DNA of 64,000 nt from Fimbriimonadales bacterium (GTDB lineage Bacteria > Armatimonadota > Fimbriimonadia > Fimbriimonadales > GBS-DC), in contig BPGO01000009.1 of NCBI GenBank assembly GCA_026003075.1, positions 1 through 64,000 of the forward strand, in the 5' to 3' direction. Below the pieces are notes generated by a model that was given only the letters and a program-made list of their open reading frames with translations, was not told the DNA's origin and ran no database searches. Positions 1-22,361 of the stretch are shown piece by piece. The position numbers and the translations under genes were made by a program. Numbering within the stretch: position 1 is the first letter of the stretch; each line of letters begins with the position of its first letter.

Positions 1-1
1 G

Positions 2-316: not shown

Positions 317-378
317 GCCCTGCCGTTGAGGCGGTGGCGTCTGAAAACAGACCTTGCCGCGTTTGTCGTCGTCTCGCG

Positions 379-831: not shown

Positions 832-836
832 CGCTT

Positions 837-5209: not shown

Positions 5210-5279
5210 GGGAGGGTGAAAAATTTACGGGGATGCGTTAGTGGTGATGACCAGGCTGGGAGAGTGTATGGCGCCTGTC

Positions 5280-6317
5280 TTATACAGCGTTGCCCAAATC
5301 TTGCGCCACGCGGGCGAAGGCAGCGATTGCATAGTCGATGGCTCGGTCATCAATCTCTTTGTGCGTCACCAGACGCAGGCGTTGCGGGTCTAATGCAATA
5401 CAGAGAACCCCATGTGCTGCGAGGGCACGCTCTATCTCGATGGCGGGGCGTGCGGTATGCACATAGACCATGTTCGTCTGCACGGTTTGCAGGTTCACGG
5501 AAAAGCCCGGCATCTCGGCGATGGCTTCGGCAAGCCGTTTGGCACGGGCGTGGTCCTCGGCGAGGCGATCGACCATCGTGTCCAACGCGACGAGGCACGC
5601 CGCTGCCAGCACCCCCACCTGACGCATCCCACCCCCAAGCAGCTTGCGCACACGATGCGCCTCGCGAATGAATACGCGCGACCCTGCCAGCACGGAACCT
5701 ACAGGACAGCATAGCCCCTTGGAGAAGGCGATCATCACCGAGTCCACATAACGAGTCCACGCCTGCGGCGAAACGCCCAACGCCACCGCGGCGTTGAAGA
5801 GCCGTGCGCCATCCAAGTGGAGTGGAATCTGGTAGCGATCCGCCAAAGCGCGCAACAAGGGCATCTGCTCGGGGGGCAGAATCGTCCCCCCACAGCGGTT
5901 GTGCGTGTTCTCGATACACACCAAGCGCGTGCCGGGCGTGTGGTCGTCGGCGATGCGAATCCGCGATTCGAGAGCCTCCACCATGAAGATGCCGTCAGTA
6001 ATCGGATAGGTGTCTACTTGCACGCCTGAAATCACCGCGGGTCCTGCGAGTTCATAGTGCAGGATATGGCTCTCGGCGTCCACCAAGATGGCATCGCAGG
6101 GCTGCGTCCAGACTTTGACGGCAATCTCGTTCGCCATCGTGCCGGTGGGGGTGAAGAGCGCGGCTTCGTGCCCCAAGTACTCGGCGACGCGCTCCTGCAG
6201 GCGGTTGACGGTCGGGTCTTCGCCGTACACATCGTCGCCGAGTTCCGCCTCCGCCATCGCACGGCGCATTTCGGGCGTCGGCAGGGTCACGGTGTCCGAA
6301 CGGAGGTCGACGCGCAT
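5280..6317 (-). CDS. ltaE: Low-specificity L-threonine aldolase
   Basis: This 345-residue PLP enzyme cleaves L-threonine or allo-threonine to glycine and acetaldehyde. Family hallmarks are visible from the start: [17 protein letters not shown], then [12 protein letters not shown], and the cofactor region [11 protein letters not shown]. The PLP-binding lysine is expected in [13 protein letters not shown] (residues about 200-210), followed by [10 protein letters not shown]. Length is normal for the family. It lies 7 bp downstream of nuoF on the same strand, so the two likely share a transcript although they have no obvious metabolic link. It acts in the cytoplasm in glycine and threonine metabolism. 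Confidence 0.93.
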
Positions 6318-6324
6318 AGCCGAT

Positions 6325-7695
6325 TTACTTCCTCACCGCGCCGAAGGTGTATTCGTAACGCATCGGGTTGTAGCGCTGGTAGCCTTTGGGCGGGAACATC
6401 TGTTGCGATTCGGGATTATCTGCGTACATGCTGCGTCCGTGCTGTACGAAGTATTCGAACTCGTGGCGGAAGTTTTTGATAAAGGCGCGGATGGGCCACG
6501 CCGCTGCATCACCCAAAGCGCAGAAACTTCGCCCGTCAATCTGGTCGCAAATCTCCAGCAGCAGGTCGATATCTTCCATCCGTCCTTTACCCTGCAGGAT
6601 GCGCTCTAAGATTTGCACCATCCAGCGCGTGCCTTCGCGGCAGGGGGTGCATTTCCCGCACGACTCGTGGGCGTAGAACTCCGCCGTGCGCCACGCGAAA
6701 TGCACGATGCAGGTGTGTTCGTTGAGTACCATGCAGCCGCCAGAGCCGACCATGCTGCCTTTTTCCATCAGCTCCTCATAGCCGATAATCGCATCCTCGC
6801 ACTTCTCGGCGGGCAAGATAGGCATCGACGAGCCGCCGGGAATAATCCCCTTCAACTTGCCTCCGCGCACGCCGCCTGCCAGCTCGATCAGCTCCATCAG
6901 GGGTGTGCCGAACTCAATCTCATAGTTGCCGGGCTTATTCACATGCCCCGACACGGAGAAGATTTTCGTGCCGCGCGAGTTTTTGGTGCTCGCGCCTAAC
7001 TGCGCGTACCATTCGCCGCCGTTATTAATAATGTGCGGAACACAGCTCAGCGACTCGCAGTTATTGATGAGCGTGGGGCAGTTCCACACTCCGGCAATCG
7101 TGGGCAGAGGGGCGTGGGGGAACTTCAGGCGCGGTTGACCTCGCTCGCCCATCAGGCTGGACATCAGCGCCGACTCCTCGCCACACTCGTAGGAGCCTGC
7201 ACCCATGTGGATATAAAGGTCGTAGTCGAACCCGCTGCCTAAAATATTCTTGCCCAGGTAGCCCGCGGCGTAGGCTTGGTCAATCGCCTTGCGCACTTTG
7301 CGAGCGCACTCGACATACTCGCCCCGAATATAGATATAGCCCCGCTGAGCGCGTACCGCGTACCCGGCGATGATCATGCCCTCCACGAGCTGGTGCGGCG
7401 CTTTGTACATCAGCTCGAAGTCTTTGAAGGTGCCCGGTTCGCCCTCATCGGAGTTGCAGATGACATAGTGGGGCTTATCGTCGTCTTTAGGGAGTCCGTT
7501 CCACTTGATCCATGCGGGAAAGCCGGCGCCGCCGCGCCCACGCAGCCCCGATTTTTTTACTTCCTCGATAACGGCTTGACGCTCCATCTGCAGCGCCTTG
7601 CGCAACGCTTGATAACCGCCATACTGCTCGTAAACAGAGATTTCGTCATAGTTCGGGACATCCACATGCTTGAGCAACAATCGGTATTCACCCAT
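6325..7695 (-). CDS. nuoF: NADH-quinone oxidoreductase subunit F (NuoF)
   Basis: This is the flavin- and NADH-binding subunit of respiratory complex I, about 456 residues. The NADH/FMN motif [14 protein letters not shown] lies near residue 50, the FMN segment [14 protein letters not shown] near 165, and the N3 iron-sulfur cluster ligands CGKCTPC near 345 with a further Cys in FCALGDA near 390. I chose the ATG at 7695 (MGEYRL) because a GGAGGC sequence precedes it; an upstream ATG at 7710 would lie 2 bp from the -10 box. No other nuo genes flank it here, so NuoE and NuoG must be encoded elsewhere. Confidence 0.93.
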
Positions 7696-7712
7696 CGTGC
7701 GCCTCCGCATGC

Positions 7713-7718
7713 AGTATA
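7713..7718 (-). promoter_or_regulatory. -10 box of the nuoF-ltaE unit
   Basis: On the minus strand the sequence reads AGGTATACT, with TATACT at 7718-7713. Transcription should start near 7706, giving a leader of about 11 nt that begins with the GGAGGC ribosome-binding site before the ATG at 7695. Confidence 0.5.
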
Positions 7719-7827
7719 CCTACTGCCACCGTCTACAGAACCTCGCAGTTTTGCCGATAATTGCTCCAGAGCCATCTATGGTAAAACGCTATCGGTGTGT
7801 CGCACGCACTGGTAGGGAGGGCAAGCT

Positions 7828-8643
7828 ATGTATGAAGCGTATTGGGGTATAACCGAGCCGCCGTTCGCACTCACGCCCGATCCCCGGTTCCTGTATATGA
7901 GCAAGGAACACGAGGATGCGTTGGTGATGCTGCACTACGCTATTACGCGCAACCGGGGCGCAGGCGTACTTATGGGCGACATCGGACTGGGGAAGACAAC
8001 AATTAGTCGCAAACTGATCGAGATTTTAGACCCGGTGCAATATAAAATCGCCTTGATTGTGAACCCAATCTTGACGCCCATCCAGTTGCTTCAGGAAATC
8101 CTGCACCAACTGGGCGTGGAGACCCACACGCGCAACCGTCAGCAGCTGGTGCAACAGCTCCACGAGTATCTGATCCACATGTATGAGCATGGGCAGCGAG
8201 CGGTGCTGATGATTGACGAGGCGCATCTGATTCGCTCCGCGAACACATTCGAGGAGCTCCGCCTGCTGCTGAATTGCCAGATGAATGACCAGTTCCTGCT
8301 CAGTTTGATTTTGCTGGGGCAGTTAGAGTTGCAGAGAAAGTTGGAGCGTGTGCCTGCCCTCAAGCAACGCCTCGCCGTGCGACACACCCTGAAACCGTTA
8401 GACCAGCAGGAGACGGCGAACCTGATTGAGTACCGCATGCGTGTGGCAGGCTATGCGGGGGAGCGCATCCCGTTCACGCCCGACGCGCTGTACGAACTCT
8501 ACCAGTTCACAGGGGGCTATCCGCGTCTGGTCTGCCAACTGGCAGATAACGCCCTACTGATTGGCATGGCGCAGAAGGCATCGGTGATTGACGGCTATCT
8601 GATGCACGGCGTGATTCAAGACTATCAAGGCAAGGAGTGGTGA
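7828..8643 (+). CDS. ExeA/GspA-like AAA ATPase
   Basis: This 271-residue P-loop ATPase opens with the ExeA-family signature YEAYWGITEPPFALTPDPRF. The Walker A motif is GDIGLGKTT (about residues 50-58) and Walker B is AVLMIDEAH (about 127-135). ExeA-type ATPases work with secretin assembly: in the type II system ExeA and ExeB remodel peptidoglycan to place the secretin. This protein lacks the C-terminal peptidoglycan-binding domain of full ExeA, so it is the cytosolic ATPase part only. It is the first gene of the pilus operon and starts after a GGGAGGG site, 4 nt before a helix-turn-helix gene, which fits a role in pilus or secretin assembly. Confidence 0.85.
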   Translation: MYEAYWGITEPPFALTPDPRFLYMSKEHEDALVMLHYAITRNRGAGVLMGDIGLGKTTISRKLIEILDPVQYKIALIVNPILTPIQLLQEILHQLGVETHTRNRQQLVQQLHEYLIHMYEHGQRAVLMIDEAHLIRSANTFEELRLLLNCQMNDQFLLSLILLGQLELQRKLERVPALKQRLAVRHTLKPLDQQETANLIEYRMRVAGYAGERIPFTPDALYELYQFTGGYPRLVCQLADNALLIGMAQKASVIDGYLMHGVIQDYQGKEW

Positions 8644-8645
8644 GG

Positions 8646-9050
8646 ATGAACCTGGTAGATGCAATTCGGTTGGCATCGCAACGACGCATTCACTCCTCGG
8701 GGGAAGAGGCGTCGCCTAATGTCGCTTCTGTTTCCCCGTCATCCTCACAAGGCGAGGAGAGCGAACCGGTACAGACCGTGCGCTTCGAGGTGCGGCTGAA
8801 CAGTCAACAGCTGTACGAGCTGTTGCAGTGGCTGGCGCGGAACCTACATCCTGTGATGACGCTGCGCGAGGCGGCACACTACCTGCGACTGCGCCCGACA
8901 GAGCTGCAAGTGTTGGCAGAGAATGGCGAACTCCCCGCGTTCAAAGTGGATGGCAAGTGGCGATTTCTCAAAAGCGCACTGGACGAGTGGATGTTGGCAC
9001 AACGCGCCACGGATCTCGTCGTGAAGGAGGAGGGAACAAATGTCGCGTAA
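8646..9050 (+). CDS. Excisionase-type helix-turn-helix protein
   Basis: This protein has about 134 residues. A GTG at 8637 overlaps the previous stop, but the ATG at 8646 is preceded at good spacing by AAGGAG and is preferred. After a variable Ser-rich N-terminus, the C-terminal half matches an excisionase/MerR-like DNA-binding fold: MTLREAAHYLRLRPTEL, then LPAFKVDGKWRFLKSALDEW. Such domains normally bind DNA. Being translationally coupled to pilM (11-bp overlap) it may be a regulator or a structural adaptor of the pilus system. Which one cannot be told from sequence. Confidence 0.75.
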   Translation: MNLVDAIRLASQRRIHSSGEEASPNVASVSPSSSQGEESEPVQTVRFEVRLNSQQLYELLQWLARNLHPVMTLREAAHYLRLRPTELQVLAENGELPAFKVDGKWRFLKSALDEWMLAQRATDLVVKEEGTNVA

Positions 9051-10182
9051 GGGTTCCAAAGTAGAAACGGTGCTGGCGATCGATATCGGTACGACGGGCG
9101 TCAAGCTCTGCGTGGGCGTGCTGCAGGGGCGACAACTGCGCGTGGAGCGGCTCGTCGAGACTCCGCTCCCCTCCGACGCCGTGCGCGAAGGCGCGATTTT
9201 AGACCCCGATGCTGTCTACAGAGCCGTCCGCGCAGCGCTCGCCAGCGCCGGTGTCAAGCAGAAAAATGTGTTGTTGACTGTTGGCGGTCCGCAAACCACC
9301 GCGCGCCCGGTGCGACTGCCGCGCATGACACCCGAAACACTGCAAAAGTCGATCCAGTTCGAAGCAACGCGCTATCTGCCCTCCGCTGCCGAAGAGCATC
9401 TCATCGGCTTCCAAATCTTGCCCTCTGGCAACGAGGAGCAGATGGAGGTGCTACTGGTCGCTGCGCCGCGCTCGACGACCGACCCACTGATGGAGGTGGT
9501 AGAGCGGGCGGGGCTGGAACCGCAGCTGCTGGAGTTGCAGCCGTTCAGCGCATTGCGCACCGTGCAGGCGCTTTACGGAGCGACGCTGCCCTTTGCCTAT
9601 GCGCTGGTGGATTTGGGGGGTGAACACACCCAAATCACCGTCGCCCGCAACGCGACCCTCGTGTTGACACGCTTCATCCCCATCGCCAGCGGCACGCTCT
9701 CTGCCGCGCTCAAGGGCTACTTCCACTACACCGACGAGGAAGCCGAACAGATTAAACGCTCGCTCAACCTTGCCGATTTGCTCAATACAGGGCAACCCCA
9801 AGAGAACCCACCCCTGCGACTGGTGCAGCCGATTTTGGACGAACTGATACGCGAAATCCGACGCTCGTTGAACTATTATCAGTCGCAGTATCAGATGCAA
9901 GGCGGACGCGGACAGATTGAACGCCTCTATCTGTATGGAGGCGGCGCACTTATGCAAGGCATGAGCGCTTACTTCGAATACAAGCTGGGCATCCCTGCCC
10001 AGCTCTTGGATCCTTTTAGCGGCGATGTCATTGTGCCTGCCCATGTGCATCCGGAGCAGTTGGATACAGGCGTGCGCTGGGCGACGGCGCTGGGAACCGC
10101 ACTTGCGCCCCTCGAGATGGCAGCTCCATTCGCAGAGCCTGTTGCGGAGACCGAGCCAGCGACCGCCCAAGCCGCCGCATAA
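9040..10182 (+). CDS. pilM: Type IV pilus inner-membrane assembly protein PilM
   Basis: This 380-residue actin-like protein has the FtsA/PilM nucleotide-binding signature near the N-terminus (LAIDIGTTGVKLC) and a second phosphate motif around ALVDLGGEHTQI (about residue 185). PilM sits on the cytoplasmic face of the inner membrane and binds the N-terminal tail of PilN, linking the assembly motors to the PilN-PilO-PilP alignment complex. The gene order pilM-N-O-P-Q that follows is the classic one. The start is the ATG after AGGAGGGAACAA. The last 30 residues are Ala/Glu/Pro-rich and probably disordered. Confidence 0.93.
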   Translation: MSRKGSKVETVLAIDIGTTGVKLCVGVLQGRQLRVERLVETPLPSDAVREGAILDPDAVYRAVRAALASAGVKQKNVLLTVGGPQTTARPVRLPRMTPETLQKSIQFEATRYLPSAAEEHLIGFQILPSGNEEQMEVLLVAAPRSTTDPLMEVVERAGLEPQLLELQPFSALRTVQALYGATLPFAYALVDLGGEHTQITVARNATLVLTRFIPIASGTLSAALKGYFHYTDEEAEQIKRSLNLADLLNTGQPQENPPLRLVQPILDELIREIRRSLNYYQSQYQMQGGRGQIERLYLYGGGALMQGMSAYFEYKLGIPAQLLDPFSGDVIVPAHVHPEQLDTGVRWATALGTALAPLEMAAPFAEPVAETEPATAQAAA

Positions 10183-10195
10183 GGAGGCAATACCG

Positions 10196-10798
10196 ATGGC
10201 AGTGATTAACCTAATCGCACAGGAACAGCAACTGCGCCGAGTCGCTGAGCGGAAGACCCGCGCGATGGGCTTGGGATGGATTCTCACGGGTGCGCTGGTC
10301 GGAGTTGGATGGGCAGGACTTTTAATGTATGCCGGCGCTCTGACCATGCAACGCGCCCACATCGAAGAGCAGATGGTCAAACTCCGCCCCACCGTGCAGC
10401 AGCTCAAGCAGGTGCAAGCCGAAATGAACACGCTGCAACCGCTCATCGAGACCCTGCAGAACGCTCGCAAAGACACCGGACGATGGCAAAAGCTGTTCCA
10501 ACACTTGGCGCAGCACACGCCCGACGGCTGCTTCCTGACGGGCGCAGAGCTCGGCAAGCGCAGCGACCGCAAAAAGCCGATGGAAATCACCCTCAAGGGT
10601 ATCGCCGAGAACCAGCAGCGCGTCGGCGAGTTCATGCTGCGCCTCAACCAGCACCCCGAACTCGAACAGGTGCGACTCGACTACAGCCAAGAGCGTGCCC
10701 TCACCGAACAGCAGAGCGCGGTCGAGTTCCAAATCACCGCGCAAGTGAAGGGCACCGCGGAGAAGCCACCACAGGAGGGACAAAGTGGCGGTCAGTAA
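10196..10798 (+). CDS. pilN: Type IV pilus assembly protein PilN
   Basis: The protein has 200 residues. The ATG at 10196 follows AAGGAGGC and begins with AVINLIAQ, matching the conserved INLLP-type tail of PilN that docks into PilM. One transmembrane helix follows (about residues 28-48), then a coiled coil and a periplasmic ferredoxin-like domain. PilN pairs with PilO in the periplasm to connect the motor side to the secretin. The frame is open upstream within pilM, but that part is only a shadow. It overlaps pilO by 14 bp. Confidence 0.9.
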   Translation: MAVINLIAQEQQLRRVAERKTRAMGLGWILTGALVGVGWAGLLMYAGALTMQRAHIEEQMVKLRPTVQQLKQVQAEMNTLQPLIETLQNARKDTGRWQKLFQHLAQHTPDGCFLTGAELGKRSDRKKPMEITLKGIAENQQRVGEFMLRLNQHPELEQVRLDYSQERALTEQQSAVEFQITAQVKGTAEKPPQEGQSGGQ

Positions 10799-11456
10799 AC
10801 GCATCCAACGCGCACAACGCGCCTCGAAACTGCTCGGACTGGCAATCGTGGGCACGCTCCTGCTCGGCGGCGCCAGCATGTATCTACCGTGGAGCATGGT
10901 GCAAGACCTCCAGAGCCAGCTGGAGCAAAAGCAGCAAGAACTGCAACAAGCCCAGCAAGCAGCGTCCCAACTCAAAGAGGCACAGCAAGCACTCGAATCC
11001 GCCCGCCGCGATTTACAATTCTTAGAGCGTGGCGTTAGCGAAGCCGCCTATGTGCCCACCATGCTCAAACAGGTCGAGCAAACCGCTCTCCAGAAACAGC
11101 TGCAAATTGTCTCGATTCGACCGCAGGCGGCGCCGCCAACCACCACGCCCCAACAACAGCAAGGCGACGAGCAGAATAGCTCCAGCCAACCGCAAAAACC
11201 CAAAGCCTATAACGAGCAACTGTTCGAAATCCAACTGCGCGGTAAGTTTTGGGATATGATGAGCCTGCTCAAAACGCTGGAGACATTTCCGAAAATTTTA
11301 GCAGTGCAAAGCCTGAATGCGCAGGCGAAAACGGCAGGCACGGAGTTAACGCCCGAGAACCCCGATTTAGAGATTAAGATGGTCGTGAAGGCGTTTATCT
11401 TCCGCGCGGGGCAAGCGCGCCCAAGCGGCTCGGCATCGCAACAGGCAGGAGGGTAG
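10785..11456 (+). CDS. pilO: Type IV pilus assembly protein PilO
   Basis: This 223-residue protein starts at GTG 10785 after GGAGGG. It has a short cytoplasmic basic segment, one transmembrane helix (about 17-36), a long Gln/Ala-rich coiled coil (about 41-85) and a periplasmic domain ending in the PilO-like strand motif LFEIQLRGKFWDMMSLLKTLE. A Pro/Gln-rich insertion interrupts the periplasmic part at about 120-142. PilO forms the heterodimer with PilN in the inner-membrane alignment complex. It is separated from pilP by a single base. Confidence 0.88.
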   Translation: MAVSKRIQRAQRASKLLGLAIVGTLLLGGASMYLPWSMVQDLQSQLEQKQQELQQAQQAASQLKEAQQALESARRDLQFLERGVSEAAYVPTMLKQVEQTALQKQLQIVSIRPQAAPPTTTPQQQQGDEQNSSSQPQKPKAYNEQLFEIQLRGKFWDMMSLLKTLETFPKILAVQSLNAQAKTAGTELTPENPDLEIKMVVKAFIFRAGQARPSGSASQQAGG

Positions 11457-11457
11457 C

Positions 11458-12120
11458 ATGGCGAAAACCCAGGCAGAAGCGAAACCGAAACAGGCGAACC
11501 CGAAGCAGGTGCTCATCCTCGCGGCGCTGGCAGCGGTGATGGTCACCGTCGGCGTGGTGCAGTTTGGTGGGCTGCTGGGCGGCGGCGAGGCATCGACGCC
11601 CTCGCAACCGCAGGCTACCGCCAGCGCAGACGCCGCGCAGAAAGCTGCTTCCGCGTCTCAAGACGCTGCACCGACGGGCACGCAGCTCCCGCCGCTTTCG
11701 CCGCGCGACCCATTCCGCCCCAATATCGTCGTTTCGAAGGGGCAAGAGAGCCAGCCTGAAACGAACAAGGTGGTGCGCAACGCGCCCTCACCGCGACGCG
11801 AAATCGCCGGCACGCCGCCGGTGCCACCGCTCACGCTGCCTGGCGGGCAGATCGGACTACAGCCTGCCGAATCCGCACCGACGGACGCATCCGAATACCC
11901 CAACTATCGCGTGTCGGGTGTGGTTCAAGGACCGAACTCCGTCGCTATTCTCGCCGACTCGGAAGGGCGCCGACGCTTCGTGAAGCAGGGCGACCTGCTG
12001 GAAGAGGGTTGGCGTGTGGTCAGCATCCAGCGCGGCACGATTACCTTGCGTAAGGGGAAAGACCAGATGACAATCCGCGTCGGTGAATCGACCGCCCCGA
12101 ACGGAGGCAATACACCATGA
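11458..12120 (+). CDS. pilP: Type IV pilus assembly protein PilP
   Basis: This 220-residue protein has an N-terminal membrane anchor (about residues 17-39) rather than the lipobox typical of proteobacterial PilP. An Ala/Pro-rich linker follows, then the family motif RDPFRPNI, and a C-terminal beta-domain (YRVSGVVQGPNSVAIL, QGDLLEEGWRVVSI, TITLRKG) like the HR domain of PilP/GspC that contacts the N0 domain of the secretin. It overlaps pilQ by 4 bp (ATGA), so the two are translationally coupled. Confidence 0.85.
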   Translation: MAKTQAEAKPKQANPKQVLILAALAAVMVTVGVVQFGGLLGGGEASTPSQPQATASADAAQKAASASQDAAPTGTQLPPLSPRDPFRPNIVVSKGQESQPETNKVVRNAPSPRREIAGTPPVPPLTLPGGQIGLQPAESAPTDASEYPNYRVSGVVQGPNSVAILADSEGRRRFVKQGDLLEEGWRVVSIQRGTITLRKGKDQMTIRVGESTAPNGGNTP

Positions 12121-14231
12121 GAACACGAAACTACGGAATGATTTGCTGGTTCTTGAGCGCACTGGTCGCCGCCCCTATCCTTACAAACGGGCAGGTCGTG
12201 CAATCGGTGCGCGTCTCGCAGGAGCAGGCACAGACCCTCATCACCATTTCGGGCGAACAGTTGCCACGCCCGCAAGTGAGCGTGTGGAAACGCCAGTTTC
12301 TGGTGTTGGAATTCAACGCGCGATTCAAAGGCAAAGGGGTGGAGCGCACGCTCAAGACCCCCCACGCCGTCAAGCTGCGCTACGGTTGGTTCAGCAGCCG
12401 TCCGCCCAAAGTGCGCGTGGTGGTCACGATGCGCGGCGCTCAGCCCTATACGCTGGAGCAGACCCCTACGGGGTGGCAAGTACGCTTGGGCAAGGCGACA
12501 CCCGTCGATGCGTCTACCGAAACTCCACCCCCATTGGAGCCATATGAGGAACCGAAGCCACCGCAAGTCGCCACGGCGCAATCTATGCTATCGCGCCCCA
12601 GCCCCTCTGAACCCACCAAACGGGGCGAGGTGGCGACGGCATCGCCTGCACCCGCGATACCGCCACCCGCACCGAAGCCTGTGCTGGTCTCGCTGGACTT
12701 CGTGAACGCGGAAATCGGCGATGTGCTGAAAGCGCTCGCGATCCAGTCAGGCGCGAACATCCTCACCGCACCCGATGTGAAAGGCACGGTCACGGTCAGC
12801 CTCAGCCGACTGACGGTGGAGGAATCGCTCAACCTCATCACGCGCCTGAGTGGCTATCGGTACGAAAAAATCGACAACACCTATGTCGTGGGGACGGCGG
12901 AGTCGCTCAAAGCGTTCCGCGACGCCCACGAGCCGCCAGCGACCCCGAAGCCGAAAACGGTGGAAGCGCTGACCTTCAAGGTGGCGAAACCGACCGAAAT
13001 CGCGACCTACCTCAGCGCACGCTTCCCCGAACTCAAAATCACTCCCTCTGGCGAGAAGGACGCGACCTACTTGCTGTTGGAAGGCGACCCTGAGACCGTC
13101 GAGGCAGCCAAAGCCGCCTCCTATGCCTTCGAGCAGCAACTCACAGGCAGCGTGGAGATTGTCACCGAAGTCTATCGCGTCAAGTATGCCGACTCGCGCG
13201 ACTTGGCGCGAATCGTGAGCCAGTTAGTGCCCGGCGTGCAGGTCTCGCTCGGTCCCGATGCGCTCCTCAGTCGCGGGAGTATGGGCGGGAGCGCCAGCGC
13301 TTCAGGCGGCATGACAGGCGGTGAGACGCCCAGCCAAACTGCGCAGCAGATGGGCGCGCCGATGCAAGGCGGCGGGCAAGGCGCTCCCCAAGGCGCACAA
13401 CCCCCCAACACCCTCGTGCTGGTCGGCACCGCACGCGAGGTACTCCGCGCCCTCGAAATCCTGCGTAAGGTCGATGTCAAACAGCCTCAAGTGGTGATCG
13501 AAGCCAAGGTGCTGGATGTGTCGGAGGGCAGCTTAAAGTCGTTGGGGCTGAGCTGGAATATTCTCCAATCGCGTGAAGCGCGTCGTCTGGATCGCGGTGC
13601 AGACAGAGCGCCTTTCCCTATCGGCGATACGCGATTCCCCGCACAGCAAAGCGGAGGCTTCAACCAAGATGGCAACTTAGGACTCGATTTCAATTTTCTT
13701 AAAGCCCCTATCGAGTTCTCCATAAAACTGAACGCTCTTGCGGAAGACCGGCGCAATCGCCTGCTCGCAAGCCCCAGCGTCGCCACGCTGGACGGTCGCC
13801 CCGCCACCATCTTCATCGGCGACGAAGTGAACTATGTCAAGCTCATCCAGCAGACGCCGCAGGGCGCGAATGTGCAGACCGACTCGGTGCAGGCGGGCAT
13901 CATTCTCAAGGTGTTGCCGCGCGTGCACGAGGACAACTCCATCACCCTGCAGATTCAGCCGGAAGTGAGCGTGATTACAGGCTTTCTGGAGGTGCCGGGC
14001 GGCGGGCGACTGCCCCAACTGGCGCGTCGCAACGCCGATACCACCATCCGCGTGGGCAACGGCGAAACTATCGTGATCGGCGGGCTGATACGCGAAGCCG
14101 ACATCAAAACCGTCCAGAAAGTACCGCTCTTGGGCGACCTGCCCTTCTTCGGCTACCTGTTCCGAAGAACCAACACATCACGCGAAAAGTCGGAAATTAT
14201 TATCACGCTTACAGTGCGTGTTATGGAATAA
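12117..14231 (+). CDS. pilQ: Type IV pilus secretin PilQ (full-length copy)
   Basis: This 704-residue outer-membrane secretin forms the pilus exit pore. A signal peptide covers about residues 1-25. An AMIN domain (about 28-120) binds peptidoglycan, followed by a Pro-rich linker. The STN/N0 domain lies at about 190-260 (LDFVNAEIGDVLKALA), N1 around 285-385, then a Gly/Gln-rich linker (about 385-425). The secretin core starts near 445 (VVIEAKVLDVSEGSL) and ends with GLIREADIKTVQKVPLLGDL. Residues about 482-538 form a block that differs strongly from the second copy downstream although the DNA on both sides is almost identical. It is co-transcribed with pilM-P. Confidence 0.93.
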   Translation: MRTRNYGMICWFLSALVAAPILTNGQVVQSVRVSQEQAQTLITISGEQLPRPQVSVWKRQFLVLEFNARFKGKGVERTLKTPHAVKLRYGWFSSRPPKVRVVVTMRGAQPYTLEQTPTGWQVRLGKATPVDASTETPPPLEPYEEPKPPQVATAQSMLSRPSPSEPTKRGEVATASPAPAIPPPAPKPVLVSLDFVNAEIGDVLKALAIQSGANILTAPDVKGTVTVSLSRLTVEESLNLITRLSGYRYEKIDNTYVVGTAESLKAFRDAHEPPATPKPKTVEALTFKVAKPTEIATYLSARFPELKITPSGEKDATYLLLEGDPETVEAAKAASYAFEQQLTGSVEIVTEVYRVKYADSRDLARIVSQLVPGVQVSLGPDALLSRGSMGGSASASGGMTGGETPSQTAQQMGAPMQGGGQGAPQGAQPPNTLVLVGTAREVLRALEILRKVDVKQPQVVIEAKVLDVSEGSLKSLGLSWNILQSREARRLDRGADRAPFPIGDTRFPAQQSGGFNQDGNLGLDFNFLKAPIEFSIKLNALAEDRRNRLLASPSVATLDGRPATIFIGDEVNYVKLIQQTPQGANVQTDSVQAGIILKVLPRVHEDNSITLQIQPEVSVITGFLEVPGGGRLPQLARRNADTTIRVGNGETIVIGGLIREADIKTVQKVPLLGDLPFFGYLFRRTNTSREKSEIIITLTVRVME
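13561..13730 (+). other. Variable block of pilQ, copy 1
   Basis: Codons in this block encode a segment between SWNILQS and the conserved LNALAEDR. Compared with the second copy at 16641-16810 it has the same length but only about half the residues match, while flanking DNA is roughly 97-99% identical by eye. In secretins this position lies in the outer-membrane barrel region, which can include surface-exposed parts. Confidence 0.75.
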
Positions 14232-14243
14232 ATTAGGAGGCAC

Positions 14244-14984
14244 ATGATGAAGCGAATCCTAATTGTAGGCATTGTTGGAGTTTTGGGTACGGTTGTCGTT
14301 TTATCAGGCTGCTCAAGCGATAACGGCGTGGCGCGTCCGCTCAGCACAACGCTCCGTGCAGTTCAAGTAGGCGATTATTACGAATACACGATACGCGGCA
14401 GCGCGACTCATCCCGATGTGGAACCCGAAGACGCACCTCCCGTGTCGGGCACGGTGCGTGTGAGTGTAAGCAATAGTGAACTCAGAATCCTCAACGAACC
14501 GATTCTACGCTTTGAGTATATCACGACCCTGCGTATAGGCACGGAGCTGCGGGAATCGCGCTTCGCACTACACTACTTACAAGGGCGCAACCCCCGCGAT
14601 TTACTCCTCATCGCCTATGAGGACACGCAGGGACAAATTCAACCTATTACGCCGCAGATTATCGCCGTGCCGGGATTATGGAGCGCGGGCTACAGCCGTT
14701 CCTATTCCGAGCCATTTGTCTACTCTTTTATTATCACAGGACAAGATGTCGTGAACACGCCACTAGGGAAATTCACTACATGGCGATGCTATGTACGCTC
14801 GCAAGTGCCTATGGATGACCCGATTGAAAACGCCGTCCGCACGGTTTGGTATGCCCCAGAAATCGGCATGCCTGTTGCAGTTCAGCTGACCACCACAATC
14901 GTTGTGGGGCAGCAAACTTGGACAGTCTCACTGCATCAGCAACTTAGCTTCACCACTGTCCCCATACCTGACACTAATCTCTGA
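14244..14984 (+). CDS. Lipoprotein A of a paralogous pair behind pilQ
   Basis: This 246-residue protein has a lipoprotein signal (hydrophobic core, then LSGCSS at about residues 20-25). The rest is predicted beta-rich and is homologous along its length to the next gene: GDYYEYTIRG near the start, a central region ending VPGLWSAG, and an end motif VWYAPEIGMPV. It starts 12 bp after the pilQ stop with a GGAGG site, so it belongs to the same operon. Lipoproteins next to secretins are often pilotins that deliver the secretin to the outer membrane. That role is a guess here, and no known pilotin motif was recognised. Confidence 0.75.
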   Translation: MMKRILIVGIVGVLGTVVVLSGCSSDNGVARPLSTTLRAVQVGDYYEYTIRGSATHPDVEPEDAPPVSGTVRVSVSNSELRILNEPILRFEYITTLRIGTELRESRFALHYLQGRNPRDLLLIAYEDTQGQIQPITPQIIAVPGLWSAGYSRSYSEPFVYSFIITGQDVVNTPLGKFTTWRCYVRSQVPMDDPIENAVRTVWYAPEIGMPVAVQLTTTIVVGQQTWTVSLHQQLSFTTVPIPDTNL

Positions 14985-14995
14985 GGAGGTAGATC

Positions 14996-15793
14996 ATGAA
15001 ACCAACACAACGACTCACCATGGCTGTTGTAGGAATAGCCGCCACGCTATGGCTTAGCGGTTGTGGCGGTGGTAGCTCTACTGCTAGCGAACCCGGCACG
15101 CCCAACAACCCAGCGAACCCAAACAACCCTTCGTTGCCCTCTACCAACCGCATCCGTTTATTCCAGCATGGCGACGAATTTACCTACACCATCTCGGGCG
15201 TTGCGCTGTATCTCGGACAACGCTTCGATGTCTCAGGAACAAGCACAGACCGTATCACTAGTGCAGGCGCAGGCGTGCTACGAGTCAAACGCGAAACTCG
15301 ACTCCACCTGCGACGCGGTTCTCAAACCTACAGCGACAACTCGCAAGCAATATACTACATATCGCAAGATCGCCAATCGCGCGAGGTGACCCTGATCGGC
15401 TACGCTATCGATGAAGACGATCCCATCACGAACTCAACTCTCCCGTACCGCGTTGTTGTTCCGGGCATCATCCATGAGAACAGCAACTTCAGTTACTCCG
15501 TCGAATTTGAAGATGGCAGGATTCTCTCCGAAACTTGGCAGATTGGCACGATTGAGCCTGTCTCTACCTACGCGGGACAGTACCCCTGCTATCGTATGCG
15601 TTTCGATGGGTATCGGTATTACCCTGCGCCATTCCGCGAAGCGCAGGAGGCAGGTACATGCTGGTTCTCGCCCCAACTGGGCACTATGACACGCATCGAG
15701 TCCAACGAGCAGGGCTGGCTCGACGGCGAACCTGTGGAATACCGCCTTACCTATATCCTTCAACGCACGAACGTCTCACCCAATTCCCCTTAG
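14996..15793 (+). CDS. Lipoprotein B of a paralogous pair behind pilQ
   Basis: This 265-residue lipoprotein (lipobox LSGCGG) carries an Asn/Pro-rich linker just after the acylated cysteine. Its core parallels lipoprotein A: GDEFTYTISG, VPGIIHENSNFSYSV and CWFSPQLGTM near the end. It is 11 bp downstream of lipoprotein A with GGAGGT before the ATG. Its stop codon TAG is in the same reading frame as the truncated secretin that follows about 100 bp later, but a strong hairpin lies between. Its function is unknown; a secretin-associated outer-membrane role is inferred only from position. Confidence 0.75.
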   Translation: MKPTQRLTMAVVGIAATLWLSGCGGGSSTASEPGTPNNPANPNNPSLPSTNRIRLFQHGDEFTYTISGVALYLGQRFDVSGTSTDRITSAGAGVLRVKRETRLHLRRGSQTYSDNSQAIYYISQDRQSREVTLIGYAIDEDDPITNSTLPYRVVVPGIIHENSNFSYSVEFEDGRILSETWQIGTIEPVSTYAGQYPCYRMRFDGYRYYPAPFREAQEAGTCWFSPQLGTMTRIESNEQGWLDGEPVEYRLTYILQRTNVSPNSP

Positions 15794-15815
15794 ATTCGCC
15801 CGAGTCTCCGAAGAT

Positions 15816-15858
15816 GCTACACCGACACCCAGATACGCGCTCTGTGTGTCGGTGTAGC
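15816..15858 (+). terminator. 13-bp hairpin after lipoprotein B
   Basis: The arms GCTACACCGACAC (15816-15828) and GTGTCGGTGTAGC (15846-15858) are perfect complements with a 17-nt loop. There is only a short T-rich stretch after it (GCTTTACGG), so it may act as a weak or factor-assisted terminator of the pil operon. It lies immediately before the point where homology to pilQ begins (about 15867). Confidence 0.55.
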
Positions 15859-15895
15859 GCTGCTTTACGGTCACAGTCAGCTCAGCCGACTGACG

Positions 15896-17311
15896 GTGGA
15901 GGAGTCGCTCAACCTCATCACGCGCCTGAGTGGCTATCGGTACGAAAAAGTCGACAACACCTATGTCGTCGGGACGGCGGAGTCGCTCAAAGCGTTCCGC
16001 GACGCCCACGAGCCGACAGCGACACCGAAGCCGAAAACGGTGGAAGCGCTGACCTTCAAGGTGGCGAAACCGACCGAAATCGCGACCTACCTCAGCGCAC
16101 GCTTCCCCGAACTCAAAATCACCCCCTCCGGCGAGAAGGACGCGACCTACTTGCTGTTGGAAGGCGACGCTGAGACCGTCGAGGCAGCCAAAGCCGCCTC
16201 CTATGCCTTCGAGCAGCAACTCACAGGCAGCGTGGAGATTGTCACCGAAGTCTATCGCGTCAAGTATGCCGACTCGCGCGACTTGGCGCGAATCGTGAGC
16301 CAGTTAGTGCCCGGCGTGCAGGTCTCGCTCGGTCCCGATGCGCTCCTCAGTCGCGGGAGTATGGGCGGGAGCGCCAGCGCTTCAGGCGGCATGACAGGCG
16401 GTGAGACGCCCAGCCAAACGGCGCAGCAGATGGGCGCGCCGATGCAAGGCGGCGGGCAAGGCGCAGCAGCAGGCACACAGCCCCCCAACACCCTCGTGCT
16501 GGTCGGCACCGCACGCGAGGTACTCCGCGCCCTCGAAATCCTGCGCAAGGTCGATGTCAAGCAGCCTCAAGTGCTTATCGAAGCCAAGGTGCTGGATGTG
16601 TCCGAAGGCAGCCTCAAATCGCTGGGACTGAGCTGGAATATTTTGCAGTCGGGCAACATCAACACATTAGACCGCACTGCGAACCGACTGCCGCTGCCCG
16701 ATAGCACCACCAACACCCCCAACCAGCAAGGATTCGGTTTCAACCGCGACGGGCAACTGGGCATCGACTTCACCATCGTGAAACGCCCAGTGGACTTCTC
16801 CGTGACACTCAATGCCCTTGCGGAGGACCGGCGCAATCGTCTGCTCGCAAGCCCCAGCATCGCCACGCTGGACGGTCGCGCCGCCACCATCTTCATCGGC
16901 GACGAAGTGAACTATGTCAAGCTCATCCAGCAGACGCCGCAGGGCGCGAATGTGCAGACCGACTCGGTGCAGGCGGGCATCATTCTCAAGGTGTTGCCGC
17001 GCGTGCACGAGGACAACTCCATCACCTTGCAGATTCAACCGGAAGTGAGCGTGATTACGGGCTTTCTGGAGGTGCCGGGCGGCGGACGACTGCCCCAACT
17101 GGCGCGTCGCAACGCCGACACCACCATCCGCGTGGGCAACGGCGAAACCGTCGTGATTGGCGGGCTGATACGCGAAGCCGACATCAAGACCATCCAGAAA
17201 GTACCGCTCTTGGGCGACCTGCCCTTCTTCGGCTACCTGTTCCGAAGAACCAACACATCACGCGAAAAGTCGGAAATCGTGATTACGCTCACCGTGCGCG
17301 TGATGGAATAG
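15896..17311 (+). pseudogene. 5'-truncated second copy of pilQ (possible cassette)
   Basis: The first possible start is GTG 15896; the open frame (471 residues) matches pilQ from about residue 235 to its end. It lacks the signal peptide, the AMIN domain and half of N0, and no ribosome-binding site or promoter precedes it. DNA homology to pilQ starts near 15867, where one base is missing relative to copy 1, and ends exactly at the stop codon. Identity is very high except for the block at 16641-16810. The frame is intact with no internal stops, and many differences are silent. It could be a silent recombination donor, a decaying duplicate, or a cytosolic protein of unknown use. Confidence 0.8.
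16641..16810 (+). other. Variable block of the truncated pilQ copy
   Basis: This block begins after NILQS (residues GNINTLDRTANRLPLPDS and onward) and rejoins the conserved sequence at LNALAEDR. It keeps anchor residues shared with copy 1 (LDR, GF.N.DG.LG.DF) but is otherwise different, and it has exactly the same length as 13561-13730. Confidence 0.75.
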
Positions 17312-17370: not shown

Positions 17371-19045
17371 ATGAGACGCACGCTCTACTACGGCGATAAC
17401 CTGGAGGTGCTGCGCAAACATATCGACGATGAGAGTGTAGACCTCATCTATTTAGACCCGCCGTTCAACAGCAACCGCGACTACAATCTGCTGTTCAAGG
17501 AGCAGTCGGGCGAACCGGCGCAGGCGCAAATCAAAGCCTTTACCGACACTTGGCACTGGTCGGAGCGTGCGTTTCACGAGTTTATCGAGGAGTGCCCACG
17601 CCCCGCACTGGTGGAGTTGTTGCAGGGCTTCGTGCGCACGCTGGGCAGGAACGACCTGACCGCCTACTTGGTGATGATGGCGCCGCGCCTGATAGAACTC
17701 CACCGCGTGCTGAAGCCGACGGGAAGCCTCTACCTACACTGTGACCCCACCGCCAGCCACTACCTCAAAGTGATGCTGGATGTGATTTTCGGGGCGAAAA
17801 ACTTCAGAAACGAAATCGCGTGGAAGCGCACAGGAGCGCACGGCGGCGCAAAGCGGTGGGGACCCATTCACGACATCCTGCTATTCTACACCAAAAGCGA
17901 ACACTACACCTGGAACCGCGTGTACGAGGCGTTTGATCCTCAGTATATAGAAGAGTTCTATCGTTTTCATGACGAAAAGGGACGATATCGACTTGTGACA
18001 CTCACGGGTGCTGGTATAACGCAGGGAGATTCGGGACAGCCTTGGAAGGGGGTGGATCCTACCCAAGTGGGGCGGCACTGGGCAGTACCTCAGCGTCTTG
18101 TCGAGGAAATTGTCGGCAAGGAACGTGCGGCGCAAATGACGGTGCAAGAAAAGCTGGATGCGTTGGAAGCGGCAGGGTACATTGTGTGGCCTGACTAAAG
18201 GCAGAGTACCTCAGTACAAGCGCTACTTAGATATGAACCCTGGCAACCCGATTCAGGATGTCATTACTGATATTCAGCCGATATCGGCTCATGCGAAAGA
18301 GCGCCTCGGCTATCCCACGCAAAAGCCCCTTGCCCTGCTGGAGCGCATCCTCCAAGCCTCCAGCAACGAGGGGGATGTGGTGTTAGACCCGTTTTGCGGG
18401 TGCGGCACTGCGATTGTCGCCGCCGAAAAACTGCGCCGGCAGTGGATTGGCATCGATATCACCCACCTCGCGATTGGGCTGATCAAGTACCGCCTCAGCG
18501 ATATGTTCGGGCTACAAGAGAAGAGAGACTATCAGGTCATCGGCGAGCCGACCACGGCGGCGGAGGCGCGCGCCTTAGCCCAGCAAGACCGCGATGAGTT
18601 CCAAAAGTGGGCGATTGGGCTAATCCCCCGCGCACGCCCGTTTCAGGAGAAGAAAGGCGCGGACACAGGTATCGATGGCGTCCTCTATTTTCAGGATGAC
18701 AAGCAGGATGCCAAGAAAGCCGTGATTCAGGTGAAATCGGGCAGGGTGGGGGTGAAGGATATCCGCGATTTTCGCGGCGTGTTGGAGCGGGAGAAGGCGA
18801 CGCTGGGGCTGTTCGTGACGCTGGAGCCGCCCACCGAGCCGATGCACCGCGAGGCGGAGCAAGCAGGCTATTACACCACGCCGTTAGGGAACCTGAAGCT
18901 GCCCCGCCTGCAGATACGCACGGTAGATCAACTGCTCAGAGGCGAGGGGTTTCAAATCCCCAGCGCGGCGCTGTTAATCGGCGTTGCCCGCGCCATGCGC
19001 CACGAAACCGACAGCGGACAACAGCAGATCCTGCTGGAGGAGTAG
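17371..19045 (+). pseudogene. Frameshifted DNA methyltransferase-endonuclease fusion
   Basis: Two overlapping frames (17371-18198 and an onward frame open to 19045) together encode one protein of about 557 residues, broken by a single-base shift near 18190. The first part has the catalytic motif IV of amino-methyltransferases, LIYLDPPFNSN (residue about 30), and a target-recognition region. The second part carries the AdoMet motif VLDPFCGCGTAIVA, so the order IV-TRD-I is the beta class. The last about 150 residues resemble a PD-(D/E)XK nuclease (GIDGVLYF, then VIQVKSG), suggesting a combined modification and restriction enzyme. Whether the frameshift is real or a sequence error decides if it is active. 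Confidence 0.8.
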
Positions 19046-19049
19046 CGGA

Positions 19050-19643
19050 TTAAGTCTCGGTTTCGGGCTGGACCTGATACGCGAGCAGGATGGCGTCGGC
19101 GATTTCGGCGAGGGGTTTGCCTGTCTGCTCGGCGGTTTGCTGCAGGCGTCGGAACGCCTCCTCTTCCGAGAGTCCGAGCTGCTGCATCAGCGTGCGCTTT
19201 GCCCGTCCGATGCGGCGTCGTGCGCGGATCTCTTGTTCCAAGTTCAACGCCTGCGCTTCAATCGCCCGCAGTTCCCGATAGCGGCTCACCGCCACCTGAA
19301 TGGCGGGGGCGAGGTCGGCTTCGCGGAACGGCTTGACCAGATAGCCCAGCACGCCTGCGCGATCGGCGCCCGTAATCATCTCCGGCTCGCTGTAGGCGGT
19401 GAGGATGAGCACGGGGGCAATCCGCTCACGAGCGAGGCGACGCGAGAGTTCAATCCCGTCCATTCCGGGCATCATGATGTCGGCGATCACCAGGTCGGGC
19501 TGTAAGGCACGAGCCAGCTGCAGGGCATCTTCGCCGTTATCTGCCTCGCCGACCACTGTATGTCCCATCGCCTCCAGCATCGCTTTGAGGTCGAGGCGTA
19601 TGACCGGCTCGTCGTCCACAATCAGCACGCGATAGGGGTTCAT
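19050..19643 (-). CDS. Response regulator with ANTAR RNA-binding domain
   Basis: This protein has 197 residues. Residues about 4-120 are a receiver domain with acidic pocket DDE, phospho-acceptor Asp in LVIADIMMPGMDG, Thr in ILTAYSE and Lys in YLVKPF. After a coiled coil comes an ANTAR domain (RIGRAKRTLMQQLGLSEEEAFRRL). ANTAR proteins of the AmiR/NasR type bind paired hairpins in nascent mRNA and prevent termination, so targets should be leaders with tandem hexaloop stems. No cognate histidine kinase is adjacent. Its start overlaps the end of the Nif3-like gene by 4 bp. Confidence 0.92.
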   Translation of the reverse strand: MNPYRVLIVDDEPVIRLDLKAMLEAMGHTVVGEADNGEDALQLARALQPDLVIADIMMPGMDGIELSRRLARERIAPVLILTAYSEPEMITGADRAGVLGYLVKPFREADLAPAIQVAVSRYRELRAIEAQALNLEQEIRARRRIGRAKRTLMQQLGLSEEEAFRRLQQTAEQTGKPLAEIADAILLAYQVQPETET

Positions 19644-20731
19644 GATTCGCCTCCTGCGAAGAAGACTTCGACGCCGCGGGGGGCTAAAAACGCCCGCAGG
19701 CGGTCTGCCAATCGGTGGGCGCCGGGCGTCTCGGTTTCGGCGTGTCCGCCTTCAAACAGCACCACATCCCGCGCCCACGCTTCCCAAGTGTGGTGGTGGC
19801 GCACTTCGCCGGTGAGGAGCGCGTCGGCGTGAATCTGTTGCGCATCGGGGAGGTAATCGCCGCCCGAGCCGCCGACCACCGCCAGGGTGCGGATCACCTT
19901 GCTGGGCTTCCCGTAGAGGCACACGAAGGGGTTGCCCAGTTTTTGGGCGAGGTAGTCGCGCAGTTCACTGGCGAGCATCGGCTTGGGCAATACACCGACC
20001 CGCCCCAGCGCATGCTCGGCGCGGGTGTGCAACGGATACACATCGTAGGCGACCTCTTCGTAGGGGTGGGCGTGTCGCATCGCCTGCACCACGGCATTGA
20101 GCCGCTCCGCAGGAACCAACATCTCGATTCGCATCTCTTCAGCGTGCTCGCGCTTGCCCACCTGTCCCAGATAGGGGTTCGCGCCTTCCATCGGCTCGTA
20201 AGTGCCCACTCCGGAGGCGTAAAACGCGCAACGACGGTAAAGCCCAATGATGCCAGCGCCTGCGTTCGCCATCGCATCGATGACGGCGTCGATATGCTCG
20301 GTCGGGGTGAACACTGCGATTTTGTAGTCTTGCCGTACCGGTCCCTCGCCGAAGGGGCGTATCTCGGTGAGTTCCAGCAGTTCTGCCAGCGTATCGTTGA
20401 TCCCGCCCGGGGCGACATCCCAGTTGGTATGCACGGCAATCAGCGCGATTTTCGCCTCACACAACAGCTGGACTGCCATCCCCACGGGGTCATCGAAGCG
20501 TATCTTACTCAGCGGGCGAAAAATCAACGGGTGGTGGGTCACCAGCAACTGGCAGTCGCGATATTTTGCCTGCACGACCGTGCGCGGGTCGGGGTCTAAG
20601 GCGACCAGCACCCGTTCCACCGTCTGGTTCGGGTCGCCGATTTGCAGTCCGATGGGGTCGTTCGGGAACGCCCACTGCGGCGGAGCCATCTCGTTCAGAA
20701 ATTCGAGCGTCTCGCGTACCGTCGTCGCCAT
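19640..20731 (-). CDS. Nif3-like dinuclear-metal hexameric protein
   Basis: This 363-residue protein belongs to the NIF3/YbgI/YqfO family (GTP cyclohydrolase I type 2-like). Metal ligands are visible in LLVTHHPLIF (about residues 62-71), IALIAVHTNWD (about 96-106), and the C-terminal LLTGEVRHHH and LFEGGHAETE. Like YqfO it contains an inserted PII/CutA-like domain (about residues 135-240). The family's substrate is still disputed, with roles proposed in metal homeostasis or nucleotide chemistry. It is the first gene of a two-gene unit with the ANTAR regulator and has a leaderless-type promoter. Confidence 0.9.
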   Translation of the reverse strand: MATTVRETLEFLNEMAPPQWAFPNDPIGLQIGDPNQTVERVLVALDPDPRTVVQAKYRDCQLLVTHHPLIFRPLSKIRFDDPVGMAVQLLCEAKIALIAVHTNWDVAPGGINDTLAELLELTEIRPFGEGPVRQDYKIAVFTPTEHIDAVIDAMANAGAGIIGLYRRCAFYASGVGTYEPMEGANPYLGQVGKREHAEEMRIEMLVPAERLNAVVQAMRHAHPYEEVAYDVYPLHTRAEHALGRVGVLPKPMLASELRDYLAQKLGNPFVCLYGKPSKVIRTLAVVGGSGGDYLPDAQQIHADALLTGEVRHHHTWEAWARDVVLFEGGHAETETPGAHRLADRLRAFLAPRGVEVFFAGGES

Positions 20732-21431: not shown

Positions 21432-22361
21432 ATGAGAATCTCGGCTATCATCGCAGCAATTGGACTTACTTTCGGTGCGCTTTGGGCACAGCATGATAAC
21501 GACCTGCTGTTTGGCAGGGACGGCAATCGGGTGGAGATTATTCAGCCGCAGCCGCACCCGATTCGGCAGATGTCCAGCGTGTTGGGGAGATATATTCTGG
21601 ATATCGGGCTGGACTTCTACTTTGACTACAACACGGGGTTGCCCGACTTACAATCGTGTCGGATACAGCAGGTGTGGATTTCGCCGGGCTTGGTCGGCTC
21701 CAAGTCGGGCTTTGGGAACCTGTTTTGCGAGTCGGGCTGCGCGAACTTCTTTAACTTGCCCACGAATAACACGCCGCACCATCACTTCATCTTTGCGGTG
21801 GGGTCGCCCGGCGTCTATGTGTGGGATGTGCGCGGGGTGAACGGGGTCGCACGGGATGGCACTGCGCTTCAAGACATGCCCTATGCCTATCGGGTGTATC
21901 TGGTGGCGGGCAACCCGTTGCGTCTCTATGGCGCGGTACAGCCAGCGCAGGGTTATCAGGGGAACCTGTATGACCTGCGCCTGACCGTGCAACTGCGACA
22001 GGGCAGCACGCCCGTTGCGCAAGCGACCCTGCCGCCTAATCCCACCGCACTCTATCCCTATATGGTGGGCTTCAACCAGCCCGCGGGCGCCTACACCGTC
22101 GTCGCCAAGTTGAGCAAGCACCTCTCGCGGCGCGTGGACAACCTCAGCCTCAGCAGCGCACACGCACGCTCGTGGGAGTTCACCACGCTGGGCGATCTCA
22201 ACGGCGACGATGTGATTGACGACGCCGACCTACTCCAGGTGCTGTTCGCGTTCGGCACAAGCGACTTCGAGGCGGATGTGAACGGCGACGGAATCGTAGA
22301 TGATGCAGACCTACTCATCATTCTCTTCAACTTCGGCGCTGTCGGGGAGGGCGCCTCATAA
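21432..22361 (+). CDS. Secreted protein with dockerin type I repeats
   Basis: This 309-residue protein has a signal peptide (about residues 1-19, ending ALWA-QHD). The body shares a domain with the next gene: DIGLDFYF, QQVWISPGLVG, PHHHFIFAVGSPGVYVW and RDGTALQD. The C-terminus (about 255-303) carries two dockerin-like calcium loops, GDLNGDDVIDDADLL and DVNGDGIVDDADLL. Dockerins bind cohesins in cellulosomes, but in many bacteria such repeats occur outside that context. The ATG follows AGGAGGGTTC. The function of the core domain is unknown; His-rich segments suggest metal binding. Confidence 0.85.
   Translation: MRISAIIAAIGLTFGALWAQHDNDLLFGRDGNRVEIIQPQPHPIRQMSSVLGRYILDIGLDFYFDYNTGLPDLQSCRIQQVWISPGLVGSKSGFGNLFCESGCANFFNLPTNNTPHHHFIFAVGSPGVYVWDVRGVNGVARDGTALQDMPYAYRVYLVAGNPLRLYGAVQPAQGYQGNLYDLRLTVQLRQGSTPVAQATLPPNPTALYPYMVGFNQPAGAYTVVAKLSKHLSRRVDNLSLSSAHARSWEFTTLGDLNGDDVIDDADLLQVLFAFGTSDFEADVNGDGIVDDADLLIILFNFGAVGEGAS

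What the first reader, a model, noticed from the sequence alone, without database searches (positions are those of the whole stretch)
12787..17311. Truncated second pilQ with a swapped variable block: a possible secretin cassette
The sequence shows two copies of the 3' two-thirds of pilQ about 3.08 kb apart. Flanks differ at only a few percent of positions, many silent, with long stretches perfectly identical. In contrast, one block of about 170 bp (13561-13730 versus 16641-16810) of identical length has only about half of its residues in common. Copy 2 has no signal peptide, no promoter and no ribosome-binding site, yet its frame is intact. Near-identical flanks around a divergent core are what gene conversion from a silent donor produces. 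In secretins this position falls in the outer-membrane barrel region, so exchange could alter surface parts seen by phages. Antigenic or phage-escape switching of a secretin would be new to my knowledge; that part is inference.
Basis: partly seen in the sequence, partly recalled or inferred. Interest (0 to 1): 0.78.

Follow-up and report, generated by a model that had tools for sequence, protein, structure and literature searches.

The report
Swapped pilus-pore rim, old end kept
In this uncultured Fimbriimonadales bacterium the gene for the outer-membrane pilus pore (PilQ) seems to have received a different outer rim together with two lipoprotein genes, while the old gene end with the usual rim survives as a silent fragment just downstream, much as in the tip-swapping of Rhs toxin genes.

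Summary
In detail: two in-register pilQ copies 3,080 bp apart, flanks 96-98% identical, a ~170-bp block only 54% identical. The interpretation must be turned round. Relatives show that silent copy 2 carries the common, strongly conserved form of the block (91% nt and all but one residue identical to the nearest relative). Expressed copy 1 carries a rarer form, clearly seen otherwise in one congener, where pilQ is likewise followed by the two lipoprotein genes that follow copy 1 here. The block coincides with the secretin beta-lip, which crosses the outer membrane. Copy 2 leads into the relatives' usual downstream genes; it lacks start codon context and ribosome site, and a hairpin precedes it. 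Best reading: a 'lip + lipoproteins' module entered by homologous recombination and displaced the native pilQ 3' end downstream as an orphan, as in rhs/CDI loci. One crossover between the repeats would restore the common form and delete the lipoproteins. In a close relative the assembly forks exactly at the lip edge, suggesting coexisting alleles. Antigenic or phage-driven hypervariation is not supported. Switching in cells is untested, and the tandem rests on one contig of one metagenome bin.

The parts
12117..14231 (+). pilQ copy 1, full-length expressed type IV pilus secretin (704 aa), last gene of pilMNOPQ; mosaic with a type A lip
   Evidence: Pfam Secretin 7e-45, STN, Secretin_N; synteny with relatives; segment identities and trees
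13494..13736 (+). divergent block of copy 1 (core 13561-13730) = beta-lip, type A
   Evidence: lip mapping
12801..13493 (+). upstream repeat arm in copy 1 (97% to 15881-16573)
13737..14197 (+). downstream repeat arm in copy 1 (about 97% to 16817-17277), native-like
14198..14231 (+). second divergent patch: non-native 3' tail of copy 1, leading into lipo1
14244..14984 (+). lipo1, lipoprotein gene (246 aa) with SD, 12 nt after the pilQ stop
   Evidence: homologue (63%) after type A pilQ in G012; absent from the other family genomes searched
14996..15793 (+). lipo2, paralogous lipoprotein gene (265 aa) with SD
   Evidence: homologue (63%) in the same order in G012; paralogy; YmcC-like fold of the model
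15816..15857 (+). strong hairpin between lipo2 and copy 2, possible terminator
   Evidence: z -5.2; not repeated in the genome
15867..17311 (+). pilQ copy 2: displaced native 3' two-thirds, orphan, frame open from 15881
16574..16816 (+). beta-lip type B (common form) in copy 2
   Evidence: 91% nt, one residue different from G005
17371..19045 (+). DNA methylase-Mrr gene, split by a frameshift, between copy 2 and the native neighbours
   Evidence: open in one frame in G005 and G010 homologues
19050..20731 (-). response regulator and Nif3-like genes that directly follow pilQ-B in relatives: the native downstream neighbours of copy 2
   Evidence: G005, G007, G010

Best explanation
[quoted passage not shown] In this lineage the PilQ lip exists in at least two forms: type B, common, conserved and alone; and type A, rarer and followed by two lipoprotein genes. 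DNA with a type A pilQ 3' part plus lipo1-lipo2 recombined into a type B pilQ by homology inside the gene. The result is an expressed hybrid pilQ (native 5' end, type A lip) with lipo1 and lipo2 in its operon and, downstream, the displaced native type B 3' end, now an orphan without start signals. The state is in principle reversible: a RecA crossover between the ~690-bp upstream arms would recreate a type B pilQ and remove the type A lip, lipo1 and lipo2 in one 3,080-bp deletion. Functionally I infer that the type A lip and the outer-membrane lipoproteins are partners (assembly aid or rim-associated proteins) and so are inherited as a unit. Shown: mosaic structure, polarity, linkage in two species, silence features. 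Inferred: route of entry, partnership (about 0.3 on its own), reversion in cells.
For: Copy 2 block groups with G005 (100/100) and copy 1 block with G012 and G001 (92/92), while the upstream flank groups copy 1 with copy 2 (99/97). Copy 2 equals G005 at 91% in the block and 100% in the last 31 nt; copy 1 at 54% and 74%. Of 80 block differences, 69 are native in copy 2 and 6 in copy 1. Type B lip is shared by 5 congeners and 3 other genera under purifying selection (dN 0.008, dS 0.47). Lipo1-lipo2 follow pilQ in G012 in the same order and occur in no other genome of the family. The native neighbours of pilQ-B lie beyond copy 2. Remote lipoprotein homologues follow pilQ in seven genomes of another family of the order. 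Hairpin and missing start signals before copy 2. ComEC present. Precedent: rhs main/orphan locus (PMC3967940); pilotin-lip binding model (PMC10653833).
Against: The tandem is seen in one contig of one bin that also holds strain variants. Only two species show the lip A-lipoprotein linkage, and G001 has an A-like lip without the lipoproteins. The stretch 13737-14197 of copy 1 is native-like, so a single clean insertion does not explain everything: the donor was conspecific or the arms were homogenised later. No direct evidence that lipo1/lipo2 touch PilQ. No reverted molecule seen.
Confidence: 0.6

Rival explanations
1. Silent-donor switching: copy 2 is a maintained reserve cassette and the lip is exchanged repeatedly to change surface parts seen by phages or competitors.
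For: Near-identical arms around a divergent core; copy 2 frame intact, with fewer amino-acid changes than neutral decay would give (8 of 17 against about 0.70 expected, p about 0.04); assembly forks exactly at the lip edge in G005 and contig ends nearby in G008 and G006.
Against: No second copy in relatives, including the single-contig genome G010; the common lip is conserved, not diversified; only two or three lip forms seen; the unit includes lipoprotein genes, so reversion by crossover loses them; the constraint signal is also expected if two functional alleles were only recently joined.
Confidence: 0.12
2. Assembly artefact: type A and type B alleles of different strains were joined head to tail by the assembler.
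For: Contig C17 duplicates window 1-13100 with 9 SNPs and ends inside the repeat, so strain variation was present and the repeat confused the assembly.
Against: Copy 2 begins inside pilQ at an imperfect edge (substitution plus 1-nt deletion) behind a unique hairpin, not at an exact k-mer overlap; even as an artefact the two alleles and the lip A-lipoprotein linkage in G012 would remain.
Confidence: 0.13
3. In-place tandem duplication of pilQ followed by divergence of one lip under relaxed or positive selection.
For: Tandem orientation and near-identical flanks.
Against: The divergent lip of copy 1 groups with G012 and G001 rather than with copy 2 (holding copy 1 and copy 2 together p-AU 0.051, borderline), and the lipoprotein genes and 3' tail are also non-native.
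Confidence: 0.05
4. Neutral relic: the recombination happened as described, but lip and lipoproteins have no functional link and copy 2 is simply debris.
For: Only two genomes carry the linkage; G001 has an A-like lip without lipoproteins.
Against: In copy 1 lip and lipoproteins are both foreign-type although the ~460 bp between them is native-like; a remote pilQ-lipoprotein neighbourhood recurs in another family.
Confidence: 0.3

Closest known systems
rhs main/orphan loci (Salmonella Typhimurium LT2, PMC3967940) and CDI orphan cdiA-CT/cdiI modules
   Same: Variable 3' part of a large surface-machine gene exchanged together with a downstream partner gene; displaced 3' fragment kept downstream without translation start; main and orphan share a long near-identical arm (522 bp at 95% in LT2; ~690 bp at 97% here) through which recombination can reactivate the orphan.
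   Different: Not a toxin; the variable part is an internal block, not the C-terminus; the partners are lipoproteins, not immunity proteins; the orphan here has no partner gene of its own; no recombinants observed.
Neisseria pilE/pilS antigenic variation (from general knowledge)
   Same: Silent partial copy without start signals, homologous arms around a variable core, in a type IV pilus gene.
   Different: One orphan only, not an array; the silent copy holds the conserved common form; no sign of repeated diversification; secretin, not pilin.
T4aP secretin-pilotin pairs (Tgl/PilQ of Myxococcus, PMC10653833)
   Same: Outer-membrane lipoprotein proposed to bind the beta-lip of its cognate secretin.
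   Different: Known T4aP pilotins are TPR proteins (general knowledge); lipo1/lipo2 are beta-rich and YmcC-like in the model; binding untested.
YmcC/GfcB-like lipoproteins (PDB 2in5, 3fzx)
   Same: Best Foldseek matches of the lipo2 model (E 1e-6 for 3fzx).
   Different: TM-scores only 0.3-0.45 and 10-14% identity: a fold-level resemblance.

Membership tests
Secretin family (PF00263), PilQ of type IV pili | Secretin domain above curated cut-off | tested here: met
   153 and 154 bits, cut-off 27.5
Secretin family (PF00263), PilQ of type IV pili | Gene order pilM-N-O-P-Q | tested here: met
Secretin family (PF00263), PilQ of type IV pili | Copy 2 has a signal peptide and the N-terminal domains | tested here: not met
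   homology starts at codon ~224: copy 2 is a fragment
rhs/CDI-like orphan displacement | Orphan 3' fragment downstream of a full gene, sharing a long arm | tested here: met
rhs/CDI-like orphan displacement | Variable part linked to a downstream partner gene | tested here: met
   lipo1-lipo2 after the type A lip in two species only
rhs/CDI-like orphan displacement | Orphan lacks translation initiation signals | tested here: met
rhs/CDI-like orphan displacement | Recombination can fuse the orphan part to the main gene | not testable with these tools
   needs reads or experiment
rhs/CDI-like orphan displacement | Variable part is a toxin with immunity | tested here: not met
   it is a secretin lip: works like, is not a member
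Silent-cassette antigenic variation (pilE/pilS-like) | Array of silent variant donors | tested here: not met
   one copy here, none in relatives
Silent-cassette antigenic variation (pilE/pilS-like) | Hypervariable expressed segment | tested here: not met
   type B lip 92% aa identity within the genus
T4aP pilotin (Tgl/PilF/PilW, TPR) | TPR fold | tested here: not met
   no TPR hit; beta-rich model
T4aP pilotin (Tgl/PilF/PilW, TPR) | Needed for secretin multimerisation | not testable with these tools
   needs experiment

The most novel reading that the evidence does not exclude
A reversible population-level two-state switch of the pilus secretin rim: type A lip with two cognate lipoproteins, type B lip alone, exchanged by recombination between pilQ and an orphan 3' end, possibly an old balanced polymorphism that alters what passes or binds the pore (pilus, DNA, phage).
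Probability: 0.15. Interest if true: 0.8.

Novelty: new variant of a known kind. Interest (0 to 1): 0.52.

Why it matters
Which parts of type IV pilus secretins face the outside, and which lipoproteins serve them, is unsettled. A natural experiment in which mainly the beta-lip and two lipoprotein genes change together points to a lip-specific partner, and would extend the rhs/CDI 'orphan module' logic from toxins to a core envelope machine. It also makes clear predictions for long-read data from such communities.

Tried and rejected
Phage origin of the lipoproteins: no relative of the 14996 gene among viral contigs, and no significant PHROGs hit for either gene. Mobile or repeated hairpin: not repeated in the genome. 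Known domain for lipo1/lipo2: only sub-threshold DUF3108. RM contig C345 of G005 as a continuation of its pilQ locus: no end overlap, so a different place. A 15-nt match to the RM gene's 3' end right after pilQ-B in G005 could be a deletion relic or the insertion target; not resolved. AF2 of the lip: low confidence over residues 479-536, so mapping relies on alignment to solved secretins. Decay test on copy 2: too few sites for a firm result. No paper on type IV pili of Fimbriimonadales in the library.

Full report
CHECK. The repeat is real and in register. Identity is 96-98% in both flanks and 54% in 13561-13730; divergence begins at 13494 and there is a second divergent patch at the very 3' end, 14198-14231. 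Copy 2 begins at 15867, inside codon ~224 of pilQ, carries a 1-nt deletion at its edge, has no start codon with ribosome site, and follows a strong hairpin. Its frame is then open to the stop.

SOURCE AND ASSEMBLY. The window is part of contig C9 of an 18-contig bin (84% complete). A second contig, C17, repeats window 1-13100 with 9 SNPs and ends 11 nt into the longest exact run shared by the two copies (13090-13339). Strain variants were therefore present, and the tandem rests on one contig. The imperfect left edge of copy 2 and the unique hairpin speak against a simple mis-join.

WHICH COPY IS NATIVE. In an alignment of PilQ from the genus and family the block has a common form B (copy 2, G005, G009, G002, G007, G010, and outside the genus G013, G016, G014) and a rarer form A (copy 1 and G012; G001 is A-like in its second half and distinct in its first). 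Copy 2 is the native form: 91% to G005 in the block and 100% in the last 31 nt, against 54% and 74% for copy 1. Of the 80 differences in the block, 69 have the G005 letter in copy 2 and 6 in copy 1. Trees agree: upstream flank copy 1 + copy 2 99/97; block copy 2 + G005 100/100, copy 1 + G012 + G001 92/92. The type B lip is under strong purifying selection (copy 2 against G005 dN 0.008, dS 0.47). So the expressed gene was changed and the silent one preserves the old form: the reverse of a silent donor that brings novelty.

WHAT TRAVELLED WITH IT. Two lipoprotein genes with good Shine-Dalgarno sequences follow copy 1, each 11-12 nt after the stop before it. G012, the other clear type A genome, has homologues of both (63% each) in the same order after pilQ. 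A search with the first found it in no other genome of the family. In G005, G007 and G010 pilQ-B is followed by the response regulator and Nif3-like genes that here lie beyond copy 2 and an RM gene. Remote homologues follow pilQ, behind one gap of 350-440 bp that holds a ~120-aa lipoprotein gene where I looked, in seven genomes of another family of the order (hhalign probability 98%). The two lipoproteins are paralogues; the model is beta-rich and resembles YmcC-like lipoproteins at fold level.

WHERE THE BLOCK SITS. It lies between the conserved 'IEA...LGLSWNILQS' and 'LNALAEDRRNRLLASP' segments. In f1 pIV the extracellular part of the barrel is residues 199-234 (PMC8563730), and the sequence match puts chain residue 229 at query residue 529, so the lip ends near residue 534 and the block (482-538) coincides with it; type II lips have 51-60 residues in that paper. 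AF2 is uncertain exactly there, as for a region that orders only in the multimer. The model as a whole matches solved secretins, V. cholerae PilQ first. Pilotins are proposed to bind the unfolded beta-lip of T4aP secretins (PMC10653833). How much of the PilQ lip is exposed outside the cell is stated to be unclear (PMC7545093), so surface exposure is plausible but not shown.

HOW IT PROBABLY AROSE AND WORKS. A type A 3' part with lipo1-lipo2 recombined into a type B pilQ and the native 3' end was displaced, as in rhs and CDI loci, where orphan fragments without translation signals share a long arm with the main gene (522 bp at 95% in LT2) and can be reactivated by recombination (PMC3967940). 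ComEC is present, so DNA uptake is a plausible route. The native-like stretch 13737-14197 in copy 1 means that the donor belonged to the same species or that the arms were later homogenised. Changes in copy 2 since then are fewer at amino-acid level than pure decay would give (8 of 17, p about 0.04), which fits two functional alleles joined recently, but the numbers are small. A crossover between the upstream arms would restore pilQ-B and remove 3,080 bp with both lipoprotein genes. That is inference; no such molecule was seen.

SIGNS OF COEXISTING ALLELES. In G005, contigs C169 and C328 overlap by exactly 99 nt, the assembler's k (contig names begin k99), and the fork is at the position equal to 13494, where the two copies here part. 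Contigs of G008 and G006 end in pilQ at residues 480 and 442. This suggests, but does not prove, lip polymorphism in those populations.

VERDICT. Observation confirmed; polarity and unit of exchange corrected; hypervariation and phage escape not supported; a module replacement with orphan displacement is the best reading, and a cognate lip-lipoprotein pair is the most useful hypothesis it yields.

Noticed in passing
17371-19045: DNA methylase fused to an Mrr-type nuclease, split here by a frameshift near 18158-18198; homologues in G005 and G010 read in one frame, and several copies occur in these genomes.
   Followed up: partly
1-13100: Contig C17 of the same bin duplicates this stretch with 9 SNPs and extends ~12.6 kb further upstream: redundant strain contigs in the bin.
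   Followed up: yes
L131, L132, L133, L136 (G024, G019, G032, G048): In another family of the order pilQ is followed by a conserved ~120-aa glycine-rich lipoprotein gene and then a ~320-aa lipoprotein gene: an undescribed pilQ-lipoprotein neighbourhood.
   Followed up: partly
L049 against L043 (G012 contigs C46 and C278): G012 also holds two strain versions of its pil operon (96% identical over 3 kb); one contig ends inside pilQ at codon ~317.
   Followed up: partly
21432-22361: Secreted protein whose C-terminal part shows dockerin-like DxNxDG repeats (by eye), shared with G005 at 93%.
   Followed up: no
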